Assembly: GCA_017634975.1 (NCBI GenBank)
Contig: JAGBMJ010000013.1
Coordinates: 29,079-93,078 of the forward strand
Length of the DNA stretch: 64,000 nt
DNA from: Lachnospiraceae bacterium
Lineage (GTDB): Bacteria > Bacillota > Clostridia > Lachnospirales > Lachnospiraceae
Reading direction: 5' to 3'
This document shows, one piece after another, positions 29,325 through 37,139 of this stretch. Within the stretch, counting starts at the first letter, position 1, and every line of letters begins with the position of its first letter. A model generated the notes under the pieces. That model did no database searches. It was not told the DNA's origin and saw only the letters and a list, made by a program, of their open reading frames with translations. A program made the translations under genes and the position numbers.

Positions 29325-32300
29325 GTGGAAGAGAATAAGAAGATTTATCATGTGGGATTGGATATCGGTTCAACAACCGTAAAAGTAGTGGCTATTGATC
29401 CGGAAGGAAAAGTGGTCTATTCGGAGTACCGCAGACATCATGCTGAGGTACGTCAGGTATTGGAACAATTACTGGGAGAATTGATGGATACCATCGGAAA
29501 TGCCCAGTGTACCATAGAGATTACCGGAAGCGGCGGCCTGCAGCTGGCAGAGCGTCTGCAGATCCCGTTTGTGCAGGAGGTCGTAGCGGTCGTAGGTGCG
29601 GTACGACAGCTGTACCCGCAGACGGATGTGATCATTGAGCTGGGCGGAGAAGATGCAAAGCTGGTGTATCTGACCGGCGGTGTGGAACAGCGTATGAACG
29701 GCATCTGCGCCGGCGGTACCGGTGCGTTTATCGATCAGATGGCATCCCTGATCCAGACGGATGCAGCCGGACTGGATCTGCTGGCAAAGGATGCACATGC
29801 AAAGTATCCGATCGCGGCTCGCTGCGGCGTGTTTGCAAAGACGGATATCCAGCCGCTCATTAACGATGGTGTAGCAAGAGAGGATCTGGCGATCAGTATC
29901 TTTCAGGCGGTGGTGGATCAGACCATTTCCGGTCTGGCATGCGGCCGTCGTATCAAGGGAAAAGTGGCATTTCTGGGCGGACCTCTGCATTTCCTGCCGA
30001 GACTCCGTGAACGTTTTGCGGATACCCTGCATCTGGGACCGGATGAGCAGATCGTGCCGGAGAACGGACATCTGTTTGCAGCACATGGTGCGGCGATCCA
30101 CGGCCAGCGCGGAGGTGCGGTATCGCTCGGAGAGATCAGGGAAAACCTGGCACATGTCGGTACCGGCATGGAACTGGAGCATCTGCAGTGTCTGTTTGAA
30201 ACGGAAGCGGATCTGGAAGCATTCCGTGAGAGACAGCGGAGCAATAAGGCACCGGCCGGAGATATCAAAGAGTATCATGGCAACTGTTTTCTGGGCATAG
30301 ACGGCGGTTCTACAACAACCAAGATGGCACTGCTGTCCGAGGACGGAAAGCTTCTGTATTCCTATTACGGAAATAACAAAGGTGACCCGGTCGGCTGCGT
30401 GAAAGAAGCGATCCGCGGCCTGGCGGAGGTGATGCCGAAAGACGCAAAGATCGCACATGCATGCTCTACCGGATACGGTGAAAAACTGTTAAAAGAAGCA
30501 TTCGGCCTGGATGAGGGCGAGGTGGAGACCATTGCGCACTACTATGCAGCGCGCTTTGTGGATCCGGAAGCCGATTGTATCATCGATATCGGCGGACAGG
30601 ATATGAAGTGCATCCGTATCAAGAACGGCAGTGTGGATTCCATTCTGCTGAACGAAGCGTGTTCTTCGGGATGCGGCTCTTTTATAGAAAACTTTGCGGA
30701 TTCCATGGGATACACGGCGAAGAGCTTCTCGGAACTGGCGCTGAAGTCCAAGATGCCGCTGGATCTGGGAACCCGTTGTACCATTTTTATGAACTCCAAC
30801 GTAAAGCAGGCACAGAAGGAAGGTGCGGCAGTTGAGGATATTGCAGCCGGACTGGCATATTCGGTTGTAAAAAATGCGTTGTTTAAGGTGATCCGTATGA
30901 CGGATCCGGCGCAGCTGGGCGAGCATATCATCGCACAGGGCGGTACGTTCTTAAGCGATGCGATATTGCGATGCTTTGAACTGGTATCCGGGCGCGAAGT
31001 GATCCGGCCGGCAGAAGCAGGTCTGATGGGGGCCATGGGTGCGGCGCTGATCGCAAAAGAACGCTGGACCGGTGGCGTATCTTCCATGCTCTCCTTTGAA
31101 GAGATCGCGGATCTGACCTTTACCACATCGCAGTCCAGATGCAAGGGCTGCCAGAACCGTTGCCGCCTGACGATCGGCCAGTTCTCCAACGGTCACAGAT
31201 ATATTACCGGTAACCGCTGTGAACGTGTTGTGGGTGGCGGCGGAAAGAAGAACGATGCGCCGAACCTGTTCGAATTCAAACGTAAGAGGATGTTTGACTA
31301 TGAGCCTTTGGAGGCAACCCAGGCACCCAGAGGCGTGATCGGTATTCCGCGCGTTCTGAATATGTATGAGAATTATCCGTTCTGGGCGGAGTTCTTCAAA
31401 CATCTTGGATTCCGTGTGGTGATCTCGCCGTTCTCGGATCAGAATCTGTATCGTCTGGGTATGGATTCGATCCCGAGTGAATCCGAGTGCTATCCGGCAA
31501 AGATGGTACACGGTCATATCACCTGGCTTGTGGAGCAGGGCGTGGACCGGATCTTCTATCCGTGCGTTTATTATGAGCGAAAAGAAAATGCGAATGCGCA
31601 GAACCATTATAACTGTCCGATGGTCATTTCCTATCCGGAAAACGTCCGCAACAATATGCAGATCATTTCGGAGAAGAACATCAATCTGATCTCGCCATTC
31701 ATTGCATTTACCGATGAGCAGGTGCTGACGAAGTGCCTGGAAAGCGTAATGCATGAAAACTTTGAGATCAGTAAAAAAGAGGTTCGGGAAGCGGTGCATA
31801 TCGGCTGGGAAGCTCTACTTAAGTGCAAGGCCGATATCACGGAGGAAGGCCGCAAGACGGTTGCCTGGCTGAAAGAACACAAAGCACATGGTATCGTACT
31901 GGCCGGACGTCCGTATCATCTGGATCCGGAGATCAACCATGGTATTCCCGAGATGATCCAGAGTCTCGGCTTTGCGGTATTGACGGAAGACAGCGTAGCT
32001 GCACTTGCAGAGGTAGAGAGCGGTCTGCGTGTGACGAATCAGTGGACCTACCATGCAAGACTGTATGCCGCAGCGGAATATGTGGCGACACAGGATGTGC
32101 TGGATCTGATCCAGCTCAACTCCTTCGGCTGTGGTCTGGATGCCGTAACGGCAGATCAGGTACGTGAACTGCTGGAAAAGAGAAACCGTCTGTATGCATT
32201 ACTGAAGATCGATGAGATCAGCAACCTGGGTGCGGCACGTATCCGTGTGCGTTCCCTGGCAGCAGCGATCCGTTCCAGAGACAGCGGTCCGCAGAAAAAA

Positions 32301-33569
32301 GTGACTCCGGTGGAATATCCGAGAGTGGAATATACGAAAGAGATGAACGACGCGGGATATACGATCCTGTGTCCGGAAATGTCCCCGCACCATTTCGAAC
32401 TGGCCAAGGCGGCATTTGAAACCTGCGGTTATCGTCTGGCATTGATGAAGAATGAAAACCACAATGTCATCGATATGGGACAGCGCTATGTCAATCATGA
32501 TGCATGTTATCCGGCGATGATCGTGACCGGTCAGATCATGGATGCGGTATCTTCGGGGGATTATGATACGAAGCGCCTGGCCGTGATGATGGTACAGACC
32601 GGCGGCGGCTGTCGTGCATCCAATTATGTGGGCTTTATCCGCAAGGCGCTGAAGGAAGGCGGCTACGGACATATCCCCGTGATCTCACTGAATGTAAACG
32701 GTATGGAGACCAACTCCGGTTTCACGCCGTCCGTGACCCTGCTGTATAAGGTGATGCAGGCCGCTATGTACGGTGACCTGATGGCAAATATGCGCTATCA
32801 TGCCAAGGCGTATGAAGTGGAAGAGGGTGCTACGGAAGCCATGTACGATAAATGGCAGAAGAAGTGCATTGAGTCGATCCGGCAACACAGCAGCATGCAT
32901 ACTTTCTATAAACTCTGCCGTCAGATGGTCAATGATTTTGACTCGATCGAACTGCGCACGGATATCGTGAAGCCGAAGGTCGGTATCGTAGGCGAAGTAC
33001 TTGTAAAATACATGCCGCTTGCAAACGAGCATCTGGCGGATCAGCTGGAGAAAGAAGGCGCGGAAGTGGTAATGACCGAAATGGTTACCTTCCTGGAATA
33101 CTGCTTCTCCGGTGCGATCTACCGAGGAAAGAAGCTGGGCAAGAGCAAGAAGGCGGCTATGGCGGCACGTTTTGGTCTGGGACTGGTCGACAGCATCAAG
33201 AAGAAGACCGATAAGATGCTGGAGGAAAGCAAACACTTTACCCCGGCGGGACGGCTAAGTCAGATCAAGAGTTTTGCGATGGAGATCCTGCAGCAGGGTA
33301 ACCAGACCGGAGAAGGCTGGTATCTGCCGGGCGAGATGATCGAGCTGATCCATCAGGGCGTGAACAATATCGTCTGTGTGCAGCCGTTCGGATGTCTGCC
33401 GAACCACATCGTGGGTAAGGGCGTTACCAAAAAGGTCAAGGAGAAATATCCTGAGGCCAATATCGTAGCGATCGATTACGACCCTTCCGCAAGTAAGGTG
33501 AACCAGCTGAACCGTCTGCGCCTGATGCTGGAAGTGGCGCAGGAAATGCTGCGAAACGAAGGAAAGTAA
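29325..33569 (+). CDS. BadF/BadG/BcrA/BcrD ATPase and DUF2229 fusion (acyl-CoA dehydratase activase-like)
   Basis: A 1414-aa protein. Two ASKHA-type ATPase domains of the activase family lie at about 8-260 (LDIGSTTVK, GGTGAF) and 324-580 (GIDGGSTTTK, ACSSGCGSF, CTIFMNSNVKQ). A cysteine cluster RCKGCQNRCR and GNRCE (about 605-640) follows. From about 670 a DUF2229/HgdB-like dehydratase region begins with GVIGIPRVLNMYENYPFW and runs to the end. Homologues activate 2-hydroxyacyl-CoA dehydratases by ATP-driven one-electron transfer through a [4Fe-4S] cluster. The true substrate of these giant fusions is not established. GTG 29325 is the start. atpB follows 30 bp later. Confidence 0.9.
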   Translation: MEENKKIYHVGLDIGSTTVKVVAIDPEGKVVYSEYRRHHAEVRQVLEQLLGELMDTIGNAQCTIEITGSGGLQLAERLQIPFVQEVVAVVGAVRQLYPQTDVIIELGGEDAKLVYLTGGVEQRMNGICAGGTGAFIDQMASLIQTDAAGLDLLAKDAHAKYPIAARCGVFAKTDIQPLINDGVAREDLAISIFQAVVDQTISGLACGRRIKGKVAFLGGPLHFLPRLRERFADTLHLGPDEQIVPENGHLFAAHGAAIHGQRGGAVSLGEIRENLAHVGTGMELEHLQCLFETEADLEAFRERQRSNKAPAGDIKEYHGNCFLGIDGGSTTTKMALLSEDGKLLYSYYGNNKGDPVGCVKEAIRGLAEVMPKDAKIAHACSTGYGEKLLKEAFGLDEGEVETIAHYYAARFVDPEADCIIDIGGQDMKCIRIKNGSVDSILLNEACSSGCGSFIENFADSMGYTAKSFSELALKSKMPLDLGTRCTIFMNSNVKQAQKEGAAVEDIAAGLAYSVVKNALFKVIRMTDPAQLGEHIIAQGGTFLSDAILRCFELVSGREVIRPAEAGLMGAMGAALIAKERWTGGVSSMLSFEEIADLTFTTSQSRCKGCQNRCRLTIGQFSNGHRYITGNRCERVVGGGGKKNDAPNLFEFKRKRMFDYEPLEATQAPRGVIGIPRVLNMYENYPFWAEFFKHLGFRVVISPFSDQNLYRLGMDSIPSESECYPAKMVHGHITWLVEQGVDRIFYPCVYYERKENANAQNHYNCPMVISYPENVRNNMQIISEKNINLISPFIAFTDEQVLTKCLESVMHENFEISKKEVREAVHIGWEALLKCKADITEEGRKTVAWLKEHKAHGIVLAGRPYHLDPEINHGIPEMIQSLGFAVLTEDSVAALAEVESGLRVTNQWTYHARLYAAAEYVATQDVLDLIQLNSFGCGLDAVTADQVRELLEKRNRLYALLKIDEISNLGAARIRVRSLAAAIRSRDSGPQKKVTPVEYPRVEYTKEMNDAGYTILCPEMSPHHFELAKAAFETCGYRLALMKNENHNVIDMGQRYVNHDACYPAMIVTGQIMDAVSSGDYDTKRLAVMMVQTGGGCRASNYVGFIRKALKEGGYGHIPVISLNVNGMETNSGFTPSVTLLYKVMQAAMYGDLMANMRYHAKAYEVEEGATEAMYDKWQKKCIESIRQHSSMHTFYKLCRQMVNDFDSIELRTDIVKPKVGIVGEVLVKYMPLANEHLADQLEKEGAEVVMTEMVTFLEYCFSGAIYRGKKLGKSKKAAMAARFGLGLVDSIKKKTDKMLEESKHFTPAGRLSQIKSFAMEILQQGNQTGEGWYLPGEMIELIHQGVNNIVCVQPFGCLPNHIVGKGVTKKVKEKYPEANIVAIDYDPSASKVNQLNRLRLMLEVAQEMLRNEGK

Positions 33570-33599: not shown

Positions 33600-34466
33600 A
33601 TGAGCAAACAGCAGAGAAGAAATATCATCATCGTATCGATTCTGTTTCTGGCGGCGATCATTGCAGGGATTGTAATGATGCCGCAGCCGGAAAAGCATGA
33701 GACGATCAAGGCTGCCATGCGTGACGCTGTTCTGCACGACGAGAATAAGATCGCTTTCTTTGGTTTTGCCGTGGATCCGTCCCTGGTATCCGGCTACATT
33801 GTTACGGCGGTGCTTTTGTTCATCGCACTGCTGATCCGGATTTTTGCCATCCCGAAGTTTCAGATGGTGCCGGGCAGATTCCAGTTTCTGATCGAGCAGT
33901 GGGTAGGTATCTTTGACGGCCTGGCAAAGACAAACTCCCCGCATAAAAACGGCGCGCTGGGCGCCTATATCTTCGGTGCCGGTACCTATATCTTTGCCGG
34001 TACCATGTTTGAACTCTTCGGTATTCAGGGTATCACCACCGAAGGGCACAGTATTTCTCTGCCGGCACCGCTGGCAAATATCAACGGTGCGATCTGTATG
34101 GGCTTTCTGTCCTATCTGTTTATTTTATCCGGCGGTATTTTGGTGAATAAGGTAAAGGGCGTGGGGAAGACACTGAAAGAGTTTTCCCTTCCGGTTTCCA
34201 TGACCTTCCGATTGTTCGGAGCCCTGCTTTCCGGTATGCTGACGACGGAACTCGTGTATTATTACATCAATCTGAGTTTTGTCCTGCCGGTGATCGTAGG
34301 ACTTTTGTTCACGGTGCTGCATGCATTGATCCAGGCCTATGTCCTGACAATGCTGACCAGTGTATATTACGGTGAAGTGACAGAGGTCAGTGAACAGAAA
34401 CCGAAAAAGAAGAAAAAGAACAAACCGAACAAACTGAACAATGATGCGGAAATCGCAGAAGCATAA
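33600..34466 (+). CDS. atpB: F-type ATP synthase subunit a
   Basis: A 288-aa membrane subunit of Fo that forms the half-channels. The essential arginine is R204 in SMTFRLFGALLSG, and the last helices carry IVGLLFTVLHALIQAYVLTMLT. An additional hydrophobic N-terminal helix (about 8-26) precedes the usual first helix, and the C-terminus is an unusual lysine-rich tail (QKPKKKKKNKPNK). ATG 33600 follows GAAGGG. It is the first gene of the ATP synthase cluster; no atpI is present. Confidence 0.95.
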   Translation: MSKQQRRNIIIVSILFLAAIIAGIVMMPQPEKHETIKAAMRDAVLHDENKIAFFGFAVDPSLVSGYIVTAVLLFIALLIRIFAIPKFQMVPGRFQFLIEQWVGIFDGLAKTNSPHKNGALGAYIFGAGTYIFAGTMFELFGIQGITTEGHSISLPAPLANINGAICMGFLSYLFILSGGILVNKVKGVGKTLKEFSLPVSMTFRLFGALLSGMLTTELVYYYINLSFVLPVIVGLLFTVLHALIQAYVLTMLTSVYYGEVTEVSEQKPKKKKKNKPNKLNNDAEIAEA

Positions 34467-34492: not shown

Positions 34493-34864
34493 ATGAAACA
34501 GTTAAAGAAGATGGCAGTAATGTTGGCAGCAGTGATCCTGCTCATCGGTGCGGTGGCATCGGTAAGCGCTTTGCAGGCGAATGCAGCGGACAGTGCAGAG
34601 ACAGCTGTGGCAGCAGAGGCACAGGCAGGCGCGGACAGCAGCACGGGCATGAAAGCACTGGCAGCTTCCATCGCCATCGGTCTGGCAGGTATCGGCGGTA
34701 CCATTGCCATGGGTATGGCGATCGCAAAGTCCAACGAAGGTGTAGCAAGACAGCCGGAAGCAGCCGGCAAGATCCAGACGCAGCTGATGCTCGGCCTGGT
34801 ATTTATCGAGACCGTTGTTATTTATGCATTGATCGTAGCGATCCTGATCGTCTTCGTATTATAA
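34493..34864 (+). CDS. atpE: F-type ATP synthase subunit c with N-terminal extension
   Basis: A 123-aa c subunit; the usual length is 70-90. Residues from about 53 form the standard hairpin: glycine-rich helix 1, polar loop RQP (86-88), and helix 2 with the ion-binding E106 in VFIETVVIYAL. Residues 1-31 look like a cleavable signal peptide (basic start, hydrophobic core, ANA-A), followed by an Ala/Glu-rich linker. At the position of the Na+ ligand Gln32 of Ilyobacter c there is methionine, so H+ specificity seems more likely. That is an inference from alignment by eye. Confidence 0.95.
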   Translation: MKQLKKMAVMLAAVILLIGAVASVSALQANAADSAETAVAAEAQAGADSSTGMKALAASIAIGLAGIGGTIAMGMAIAKSNEGVARQPEAAGKIQTQLMLGLVFIETVVIYALIVAILIVFVL

Positions 34865-34903: not shown

Positions 34904-35398
34904 ATGCCGTTGGGAATTGACTTTACACAGATATTGCTGCATTTATTCAATGTGATCATACTGTTTGTAGGTCTCTACATCCTGCTGTATGCGCCGGTGA
35001 AGGCGTTTATGCAGAAGCGCAGCGACTACTATGCGGATCTGGAGAAGGATACCAAAGCCGCATTGGAAGAAGCAAATGCAAAAAAAGCAGAGTATGAGGA
35101 AAAGCTGGCAGCCGTGGAACAGGAGATCGAGGAGCAGCGCAAGGCTGCCAACAGTGAGATCGCGGCCATGAAGCGGGAGCAGAGCGAGGCGGCCAAAGAG
35201 GAAGCCAGAAAGATCCTTGAGAGTGCGAGAGAAAACGGTGAGAAGCAGAAGCTGATGATCATCAGCGGTGCCCGTGAGGATATCACGCATATGATCGAAG
35301 AGGCAACCCGCAAGGTTATGGCGGGAGAAGCGTCTGCAGATCCTTACGAGGATTTTATCCGGAATGCGGAAAGGAGCCGTGCAAATGGCCACAAGTAA
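34904..35398 (+). CDS. atpF: F-type ATP synthase subunit b
   Basis: A 164-aa peripheral-stalk subunit. One membrane helix (about 8-30) is followed by a long charged coiled coil (about 38-150, with EYEEKLAAVEQEIEEQRKAA). Length is normal. Its last 14 bases overlap the start of atpA. In other bacteria atpH (delta) stands between atpF and atpA, but here there is none. The b dimer should therefore contact whatever delta-like part alpha provides. Confidence 0.93.
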   Translation: MPLGIDFTQILLHLFNVIILFVGLYILLYAPVKAFMQKRSDYYADLEKDTKAALEEANAKKAEYEEKLAAVEQEIEEQRKAANSEIAAMKREQSEAAKEEARKILESARENGEKQKLMIISGAREDITHMIEEATRKVMAGEASADPYEDFIRNAERSRANGHK

Positions 35399-37139
35399 GA
35401 TACAGAAAGCCGTTCTCTATGCTGCGAAGGAGCCGACTGCGCAGCAGCAGGAAAGGCTTTTGCATTTTTTGGAAGAAAAATACGGCAGGGCTTATGAACT
35501 GGACTGGCATGAGGATGTGAGTACCGGCAATGGCTTTCGACTGGTGGTGGGCGACGAAGTGTACGACAACACCAAGGAAGGCCGCTTTTTGCAGTTGAAA
35601 GAACTGCTGGGCGAGCTGGCGCTCCGGGAGGATGCGGAAGATGTGATCTCACTGTACCGTTCCTCCATCGACAGCTGGGATGCCGAGACAGTGGCGGAAG
35701 AAGAAGGTACGGTGCTTTCGGTCGGCGACGGTATCGTATTTATTGACGGACTGGGCGGCGCGGAATATGGCGAGATCGTGGTATTTGAGTCCGGCGTGAA
35801 GGGAATGTTCCAGGATATCCGTCAGGATACCATGGGCGTGATCCTGTTTGGTGACGACAGTGAAGTGCGTGTGGGCAGCCGTGTGCGCCGCACAAAAAAG
35901 ACGGCAGGTATCCCGGTAGGGGATGCGTTCCTGGGACGTGTGGTCAATGCACTGGGTGAGCCGATCGATGGGATGGGGCCGATCGCGGCCTCGGATTACC
36001 GTATCGTGGAAGCACCGGCGGCAAGCATCATTGACCGTCAGTCGGTAGACACGCCGATGTACACGGGACTGCTTACGATCGACTCGATGTTCCCGATCGG
36101 ACGCGGACAGAGAGAGCTGATCATCGGCGACCGGCAGACCGGCAAGACAACGATCGCACTGGATACGATCCTGAACCAGAAGGGGAAGGACGTGATCTGC
36201 ATCTATGTGGCGATCGGACAGAAAGCCGGCAGCATCGCGCAGCTGGTCGGAAATCTGAAGAAAAAGGGCGCTATGGATTATACGGTCGTTGTCAGTGCAA
36301 CGGCCAGTGAACCGGCACCCATTCAGTATATCGCGCCTTATGCGGGAACTTCGCTGGGTGAGTATTTTATGTATCAGGGCAAGGATGTGCTGATCGTTTA
36401 CGATGATCTCTCAAAGCACGCGATCGCTTACCGCGCCTTATCCCTGCTGCTGGATCGTTCCCCGGGACGTGAGGCGTATCCGGGCGATGTCTTTTATCTG
36501 CATTCCAGACTGCTGGAACGCTCCGCGCATTTATCGGATGCGCTGGGCGGCGGCAGTATGACGGCACTGCCGATCGTAGAGACCCAGGGAGGCGATGTAT
36601 CGGCGTATATTCCGACGAACATCATCTCCATCACGGATGGCCAGATCTTTCTGGAGAGCGACCTGTTCTTTTCCGGACAGCGGCCTGCCGTAAATGTCGG
36701 ACTTTCCGTATCCCGTGTGGGTGGCGCGGCACAGACTAAGGCAATGAAAAAGGCGGCCGGCTCGATCCGTCTGGATCTGGCACAGTATCGCGAGATGGAG
36801 ATCTTTACCCAGTTTTCCAGTGATCTGGATGAAGCCACCCGAAAACAGCTGGTCTACGGACAGGGGCTGATGCAGCTGCTGCGGCAGCCGCAGGGCAGCC
36901 CGTTTTCCCTGCATGAGCAGGTAGTGATCCTGGTGGCTGCGACTGCGCATGTAATGCAGGATGTGGATCCGCTCAGGATCACGGAATTCAGGAAAGCGCT
37001 GCTGGCGTATTTTGAACAGAAGAAACGGACCTTGATGCAGAAGATCGATACCGAAGGCACGATGTCGGACGAACAGAAGGCAGAGATCATAGAGACGGCA
37101 AAGGAGTATCTTGAGCTGTGGCAAACGGCAGAGAAATAA
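35385..37139 (+). CDS. atpA: F-type ATP synthase subunit alpha fused to a delta C-terminal-like domain
   Basis: A 584-aa protein; normal alpha is about 500. Residues from about 85 are a typical alpha: VAEEEGTVLSVGDGI, Walker A GDRQTGKTT (248-256, K254), and SISDGQ-like IISITDGQIFLESDLF. The first 78 residues are additional and resemble the C-terminal domain of delta/OSCP: PTAQQQERLLHFLEEKYG, then GFRLVVGDEVYDNTKEGRFLQL, matching the delta pattern of a helix, a GG..V.VGD.V.D.S..GR..L hairpin and a helix. The N-terminal six-helix domain of delta is absent. Start ATG 35385 has AAGGAG nine bases upstream; an earlier ATG at 35364 lacks a site. Confidence 0.93.
   Translation: MATSKIQKAVLYAAKEPTAQQQERLLHFLEEKYGRAYELDWHEDVSTGNGFRLVVGDEVYDNTKEGRFLQLKELLGELALREDAEDVISLYRSSIDSWDAETVAEEEGTVLSVGDGIVFIDGLGGAEYGEIVVFESGVKGMFQDIRQDTMGVILFGDDSEVRVGSRVRRTKKTAGIPVGDAFLGRVVNALGEPIDGMGPIAASDYRIVEAPAASIIDRQSVDTPMYTGLLTIDSMFPIGRGQRELIIGDRQTGKTTIALDTILNQKGKDVICIYVAIGQKAGSIAQLVGNLKKKGAMDYTVVVSATASEPAPIQYIAPYAGTSLGEYFMYQGKDVLIVYDDLSKHAIAYRALSLLLDRSPGREAYPGDVFYLHSRLLERSAHLSDALGGGSMTALPIVETQGGDVSAYIPTNIISITDGQIFLESDLFFSGQRPAVNVGLSVSRVGGAAQTKAMKKAAGSIRLDLAQYREMEIFTQFSSDLDEATRKQLVYGQGLMQLLRQPQGSPFSLHEQVVILVAATAHVMQDVDPLRITEFRKALLAYFEQKKRTLMQKIDTEGTMSDEQKAEIIETAKEYLELWQTAEK

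What the first reader, a model, noticed from the sequence alone, without database searches (positions are those of the whole stretch)
35385..37139. ATP synthase alpha subunit with a fused delta C-terminal-like domain and no atpH
Seen: atpF and atpA overlap with no gene between them, and alpha is 584 aa, with about 80 extra N-terminal residues whose pattern (PTAQQQERLLHFLEEKYG, then GFRLVVGDEVYDN...GRFLQL) matches the C-terminal domain of delta/OSCP. Known: delta is normally a separate single-copy subunit whose N-terminal domain binds the alpha N-termini and whose C-terminal part binds b. Inference: the delta N-terminal domain was lost and the b-binding part moved onto alpha, which would give three copies per enzyme. 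I know of b-delta fusions in mycobacteria, but not of this arrangement.
Basis: partly seen in the sequence, partly recalled or inferred. Interest (0 to 1): 0.82.

Follow-up and report, generated by a model that had tools for sequence, protein, structure and literature searches.

The report
ATP synthase alpha carrying delta's anchor
In this gut-type bacterium one of two ATP synthases has no separate delta subunit and carries delta's stalk-binding half on its alpha subunit instead, the same layout that engineers recently built to give the enzyme up to three side stalks and a lower gear, so it points to a natural version of that machine.

Summary
The main observation holds. [quoted passage not shown] The operon has no delta gene. 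'No atpH' is wrong for the genome: a conventional operon with a full delta lies on another contig.

The arrangement is common in relatives: 66 of 299 family genomes carry such fusions. In 20 of 20 genomes tested the fused alpha is the only alpha found, and no other delta passes the cut-off. Relatives show stages: separate delta, full delta-alpha, delta-CTD-alpha, and one b-delta-alpha protein. Fusions arose at least twice.

The kind is in print. PMC12229609 (2025) engineered this fusion, obtained up to three stalks and a doubled H+/ATP ratio, and named Acidaminococcus as a natural case. The engineered chain 9jc1_I is the top structural match to the window protein among 350,542 chains.

Most likely each alpha carries its own b dock, so one to three stators can bind. 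Stalk number in the native enzyme is unproven.

The parts
35385..37139 (+). atpA: fused delta-CTD-alpha subunit, 584 aa
   Evidence: TIGR00962 733 bits plus Pfam OSCP, ATP-synt_ab_N, ATP-synt_ab, ATP-synt_ab_C; top fold match 9jc1_I
35385..35621 (+). delta/OSCP C-terminal domain (residues 1-79: E7-13 H19-33 E37-43 E51-55 E58-61 H64-79)
   Evidence: Pfam OSCP 99-171/172; model of residues 1-85 alone has mean pLDDT 83.9; fold matches
35622..35699 (+). linker and retained native alpha N-terminal helix (residues 80-105)
   Evidence: profile positions 8-100 align with residues 4-100 of engineered 9jc1_I, linker included; low model confidence here
33600..34466 (+). atpB, a subunit, 288 aa
   Evidence: Pfam ATP-synt_A 56.9 bits
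34493..34864 (+). atpE, c subunit, 123 aa, with long N-terminal extension
   Evidence: Pfam ATP-synt_C at residues 56-119; motif M/FIETVVIY
34904..35398 (+). atpF, b subunit, 164 aa
   Evidence: Pfam ATP-synt_B 38.9 bits
37118..38014 (+). atpG, gamma subunit
   Evidence: Pfam ATP-synt 301 bits
38030..39457 (+). atpD, beta subunit (listed ORF; the true start may lie a few codons downstream)
   Evidence: Pfam ATP-synt_ab 252.9 bits
39478..39897 (+). atpC, epsilon subunit
   Evidence: Pfam ATP-synt_DE_N and ATP-synt_DE

Best explanation
This operon encodes an F-type ATP synthase without a delta subunit. The part of delta that binds the b stalk is built into the N-terminus of alpha, and the delta N-terminal domain, which normally caps the top of F1 in one copy, is gone (shown by sequence). 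Each of the three alphas therefore offers one b dock, and b2 with its a subunit binds to the fused domain as in an ordinary enzyme (inferred from fold, from the b C-terminal consensus and from the engineered twin). With the single-copy cap gone, the head can take up to three b2-a stators, so ions per ATP can rise two- to threefold and ATP can be made at a low ion-motive force, or more ions pumped per ATP in reverse (inferred; a doubling was shown only for the engineered Bacillus PS3 enzyme). The coupling ion is probably H+, because the c subunit lacks the Na+-type glutamine of the genome's other, conventional enzyme (inferred from a recalled motif).
Against: No stalk or a-subunit count exists for a native enzyme in what I saw. 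Ten relatives keep the delta N-terminal domain inside the fusion, so fusion alone does not require a symmetric head. In the window an in-frame GTG at 35643 with an upstream GGGAGGA could start a shorter alpha. The window's genome also has a conventional delta and alpha, so mixed assembly cannot be excluded there. In the engineered enzyme proton-pump activity was lower, and three-stalk particles were very rare in cryo-EM.
Confidence: 0.65

Rival explanations
1. Single-stalk enzyme: all three alphas carry a delta-CTD, but only one binds b2 and a; the other two docks stay empty. The fusion is then just a simpler way to hold one stator, with an ordinary ion-to-ATP ratio.
For: PMC12229609 states that all ATP synthases so far have one a subunit. 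The operon holds single a and b genes. Ten relatives still carry the delta N-terminal domain, which that paper says limits stalks to one.
Against: The engineered twin (with the epsilon C-terminal domain also removed) carried on average two and up to three stalks. Loss of the N-terminal domain may be repeated (single-loss tree p-AU 0.0385), which would fit selection for a freer head but is weakly supported.
Confidence: 0.28
2. Mixed alpha pool: an internal start or proteolysis, or alpha from the second operon, supplies unfused alpha, so the enzyme holds about one delta-CTD.
For: The window has an in-frame GTG at 35643 with a Shine-Dalgarno-like GGGAGGA about 11 nt upstream. The genome has a conventional alpha.
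Against: No start is conserved there: 9 of 41 distinct fused alphas have no ATG/GTG/TTG in that 41-codon span, and 9 of 41 (the window among them) have one with 4 or more SD-like bases. In 20 of 20 relatives tested no other alpha was found. Other start codons and proteolysis were not tested.
Confidence: 0.06
3. The extension is a vestige or an annotation artefact without a role.
For: The extension is less conserved than the rest of alpha (median dN/dS 0.088 against 0.034).
Against: Purifying selection, a complete predicted domain fold, presence in 65 genera of the sample, and no other delta over the cut-off in 20 genomes.
Confidence: 0.01

Closest known systems
Engineered delta-delta-N-alpha FoF1 of Bacillus PS3 (PMC12229609, PDB 9jc1) and the natural fusions it names in Acidaminococcus fermentans (also UniProt G4Q3K6, A0A1I2C5T3)
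   Same: delta N-terminal domain absent, delta C-terminal domain joined by a short linker to the alpha N-terminus, no separate delta in the operon; collinear with 9jc1_I over its residues 4-100 and its top fold match
   Different: Natural, and in a lineage apart from the fusions of other families (one clade rejected, p-AU 9.9e-5). Here it coexists with a conventional enzyme. Stalk number unknown. That Acidaminococcus falls in the other group is my inference; its sequence was not seen.
Mycobacterial b-delta fusion (PDB 7jg5 and others)
   Same: delta domain joined to another stator subunit; the window domain matches its delta CTD
   Different: There the fusion partner is b and, as recalled, delta stays single-copy with its N-terminal domain; here only the CTD is kept and it is on alpha
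N-ATPase (alternate F1Fo, TIGR03324)
   Same: an F-type enzyme with no delta gene, found beside a conventional enzyme (recalled)
   Different: The window alpha scores 606 bits, under the TIGR03324 cut-off of 750.5, and the gene order differs (window; N-ATPase order)
V/A-type ATPases with two or three EG stalks

Membership tests
F-type ATP synthase alpha subunit (TIGR00962) | score over the curated cut-off and the three alpha/beta domains | tested here: met
   733 bits against 484.45; Pfam ATP-synt_ab_N, ab, ab_C all over cut-off
F-type ATP synthase alpha subunit (TIGR00962) | P-loop GDRQTGK and the SVSRVG segment (role of its arginine recalled) | tested here: met
   G248-K254 and S441-G446 invariant in 45 aligned fused alphas
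delta/OSCP subunit (PF00213) | C-terminal, b-binding domain | tested here: met
   profile 99-171/172 over cut-off; fold
delta/OSCP subunit (PF00213) | N-terminal helical domain that caps F1 | tested here: not met
   delta-profile match starts at position 94 of 170 in the same protein (L002); no room for it between b and alpha
[quoted passage not shown]
[quoted passage not shown]
   needs purified enzyme
[quoted passage not shown]
   needs proteoliposomes
N-ATPase (TIGR03324) | score over the curated cut-off of the alpha model | tested here: not met
   606 against 750.5 bits
Mycobacterial b-delta fusion | b and delta in one chain | tested here: not met
   b is a separate 164-aa ORF

The most novel reading that the evidence does not exclude
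Lachnospiraceae-type bacteria run natural multi-stalk F-type ATP synthases with up to three a subunits, working as a low-gear enzyme beside, or in place of, the ordinary one. The design evolved at least twice, here along the path separate delta, full delta-alpha fusion, loss of the symmetry-breaking delta cap. In one genome (G068) even b is fused in, so that b and alpha are encoded 1:1.
Probability: 0.5. Interest if true: 0.9.

Novelty: new member of a known kind. Interest (0 to 1): 0.68.

Why it matters
The stator of F-type ATP synthase is taught as one stalk and one a subunit, so ions per ATP are set by the c-ring alone. [quoted passage not shown] The window belongs to a large natural group with the same design: 66 of 299 genomes sampled in its family, about ten further families of the phylum (capped list), a named strain (Eubacterium ruminantium ATCC 17233, L133), and genomes in which no other F-type alpha was found. 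That makes the question whether natural multi-stalk ATP synthases exist directly testable, and gives a series of intermediates to test why delta normally limits the enzyme to one stalk.

Tried and rejected
Rejected: hidden or displaced delta N-terminal gene in G062 and G137. Their OSCP matches reached upstream across stops. In G062 the b gene lies in the same frame just upstream; in G137 the upstream part of the frame shows no open delta N-terminal domain. Rejected: internal start as a conserved feature. Rejected: true second copy of the fused operon; C104 is 99.98% identical to the window over the 18 kb compared. Rejected: one origin for the main and the other-family fusions (50 rows; L051 and L241 were left out of the group tested). 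Weak: repeated loss of the delta N-terminal domain rests on p-AU 0.0385, with the group chosen after the tree was seen; holding the full fusions (without L241) as one clade is not rejected, p-AU 0.0902. The tree used LG+G4 without mixture, and its bootstrap had not settled. Rows left out: the tree used 84 of 199 distinct alphas; the labels of L123 and L210 were changed from full to CTD because their length came from an upstream start codon, which bears out. L223 (G330, another family, 578 aa) gave no delta-profile match, so it may not be a fusion. The conventional-delta profile is weak: it missed the window protein too. L051 (G071) and L241 (G050, a full fusion near the base) fall outside the main fused clade and may be further origins. 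The listings were cut at about 150 rows. The 20 genomes were chosen because one search showed a single weak OSCP match; G256 has a further sub-cut-off match (16.5 bits). Physiology: no RnfC at E 1e-5 and no NiFe hydrogenase large subunit at E 0.001 in G000; an OAD beta subunit is present. Only these three families were searched, so the direction in which the enzyme runs stays open. The triple fusion was sought in its genus, but only that one genome is held. Nine paper searches showed no other report of a natural delta-alpha fusion in their listings; papers outside the open library were not seen.

Full report

The genome. G000 (4.36 Mb, 147 contigs, 99.1% complete, 7.5% contamination) also has a conventional operon on C123 with a 182-aa delta and a 504-aa alpha. 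The fused operon appears again on C104, but the 18,001 bases compared are 99.98% identical to the window, which suggests a redundant contig. The congener G004 (1% contamination) also has both enzymes.

How common it is. A profile of 41 fused N-termini was run over 299 genomes of the window's family (298 genera). The tool does not name the family; the nearest named rows in the tree are Lachnospiraceae, so I call it Lachnospiraceae by inference. By my count of the rows, 66 of 299 genomes (65 genera) have a match at E 1e-29 or better that runs through without a stop: 43 with frames of 576-647 aa (delta-CTD-alpha by length), 20 with 669-758 aa (full delta-alpha by length), one of 787 aa, and two cut by contig ends; G220 is a borderline further one. 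In the named genome collection 194 stretches matched a pattern from 11 fused sequences, 184 encode a relative, and the best 80 were kept. All 80 show an alpha behind b (two of the alphas cut short by contig ends), and no separate delta ORF appeared in a single-sequence search. From b stop to the alpha barrel there are 284-341 nt in 79 of 79 loci measured. Of 17 such loci fetched, 15 show a match of the conventional delta profile inside alpha (L225 only at 15 bits), and L223 and L226 none; that profile also misses the window protein, and L226 matched the fused profile at 1.1e-45 (G565). With a profile of the sister delta type, 128 of 129 distinct fused alphas match: 10 from position 18 or earlier, so over the whole of delta, 118 from position 82-114, so over the C-terminal domain only, and 1 (L223) not at all.

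Does it work without delta? In one search I looked at 29 genomes. In 20 of them the fused alpha is the only OSCP match at E 0.05, except that G256 has a further sub-cut-off match of 16.5 bits. TIGR00962 finds exactly one alpha at E 1e-100 in each of these 20, the fused one. The genomes are 81 to 100% complete. The fused subunit most likely does delta's job there. The extension is under purifying selection: dN/dS median 0.088 over 17 pairs, range 0.022-0.591, against a median of 0.034 for alpha. The b proteins of fused operons share the C-terminal consensus YDxFLdxAE (74 proteins), which fits a retained delta-binding tip.

How it arose. In a tree of 84 alpha cores, with the extension left out, the window groups with Lachnospiraceae AC2031 and XPB1003, an uncultured Lachnospiraceae MAG (L123) and its congener G004 (100/98). 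The Lachnospiraceae-type fusions sit inside a clade of second F-type enzymes in which 14 rows still have a separate delta, of about 170-180 aa in L230, L231 and L233-L239. Full and CTD-only fusions are mixed in the fused part, and one full fusion (L241) branches near the base. Holding the 30 CTD-only rows of that clade together costs 74 log units, p-AU 0.0385; holding 8 full ones together costs 63, p-AU 0.0902. So repeated loss of the delta N-terminal domain is likely but weakly shown. Holding 38 Lachnospiraceae-type and 12 other-family fusions together is rejected, p-AU 9.9e-5, so delta-alpha fusion arose at least twice. One genome, G068, has b, delta-CTD and alpha in one ORF of 778 aa; it is that genome's only alpha at E 1e-100, only OSCP match at E 0.05 and only ATP-synt_B match over the cut-off. 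In G062 one stop codon alone separates b from the fused alpha in the same frame, which shows how such a protein can arise. The triple fusion is a single case.

Mechanism. PMC12229609 (passages, whole Discussion) deleted the N-terminal domain of Bacillus PS3 delta and fused the rest to alpha by a short linker, in a background without the epsilon C-terminal domain. The enzyme formed up to three peripheral stalks, each with an a subunit. The a and b amounts rose 2.2 and 1.8 times, H+/ATP rose from 3.0 to 5.8, and the equilibrium ion-motive force fell to about half. The authors conclude that the delta N-terminal domain, sitting on the pseudo-threefold axis, limits the stalk number to one. They also report lower proton-pump activity and very few three-stalk particles. 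The window protein has the same design: the three chains of 9jc1 rank 1, 2 and 4 of 350,542 and align over 568-574 columns, and the sequence profile runs without a break through delta-CTD, linker and alpha N-terminal helix. My best explanation is that the natural enzyme docks b2 on fused delta-CTDs and can hold more than one stator. Docking is well supported; the number of stalks is inference.

Alternatives. A single-stalk enzyme with two empty docks is the main rival. Unfused alpha from an internal start is not general: 9 of 41 distinct fused alphas have no ATG, GTG or TTG in the 41-codon span around the native alpha start, and 9 of 41 have one with at least four Shine-Dalgarno-like bases; the window is one of the latter, with GTG at 35643. 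It needs a protein-level test there.

Ion and direction. In one search, 34 of 58 c subunits in loci labelled conventional (other families included) read Q with VAETTGLY, a Na+-type pattern (motif recalled); the window genome's conventional c has this pattern. Of 120 c subunits in loci labelled CTD, none has this Q; 105 read M with an ET motif and 15 read I with an EAT motif (the same locus can occur more than once). Among 16 c subunits of other-family CTD fusions 3 do have Q. The fused enzyme of the window is thus probably H+-coupled while the conventional one in the same genome is probably Na+-coupled. G000 has an OAD-type decarboxylase beta subunit but no RnfC and no NiFe hydrogenase large subunit, so the fused enzyme may run as an ATP-driven pump in this organism. 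This is open.

Known or new. The layout is known as an engineered enzyme and as a prediction for Acidaminococcus. Nine searches of the open library listed no report in Lachnospiraceae. In the passages I saw, PMC5709465 reports a delta-b fusion, and PMC4478896 says that all 62 butyrivibrio genomes have all ATP synthase subunits, with no mention of a fusion. I therefore file it as a new member of a known kind, from a separate and large natural lineage, with relatives (full delta-alpha and b-delta-alpha) that I found described nowhere in those searches.

Noticed in passing
L227 4129-6492 (G068:C33): One ORF of about 778 aa encodes b, delta-CTD and alpha together; no other ATP-synt_B match over cut-off, OSCP match or alpha found in that genome. 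Single case; b and alpha would be 1:1.
   Followed up: partly
   Followed up: partly
window 34493-34864: The c subunit has about 50 extra N-terminal residues that look by eye like a signal peptide; most c subunits of the loci labelled CTD are similarly long before the first site.
   Followed up: partly
window 34493-34864 and L036: The genome's two c subunits differ at the ion site: M/FIETVVIY in the window, Q/VAETTGLY in the conventional operon, suggesting H+ and Na+ coupling.
   Followed up: partly
L037 (G000:C104): Contig C104 repeats the window at 99.98% over the 18 kb compared; probably assembly redundancy.
   Followed up: yes
G005 contigs C15, C17, C37: Five delta-like matches at E 0.01 or better, some partial and close together on C15; not resolved.
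   Followed up: no
L141: A MAG labelled Acholeplasmatales carries the Lachnospiraceae-type fused operon: transfer or misbinning.
   Followed up: no
window 29325-33569: A 1414-aa ORF just upstream resembles the 2-hydroxyacyl-CoA dehydratase activator family by eye; not searched.
   Followed up: no
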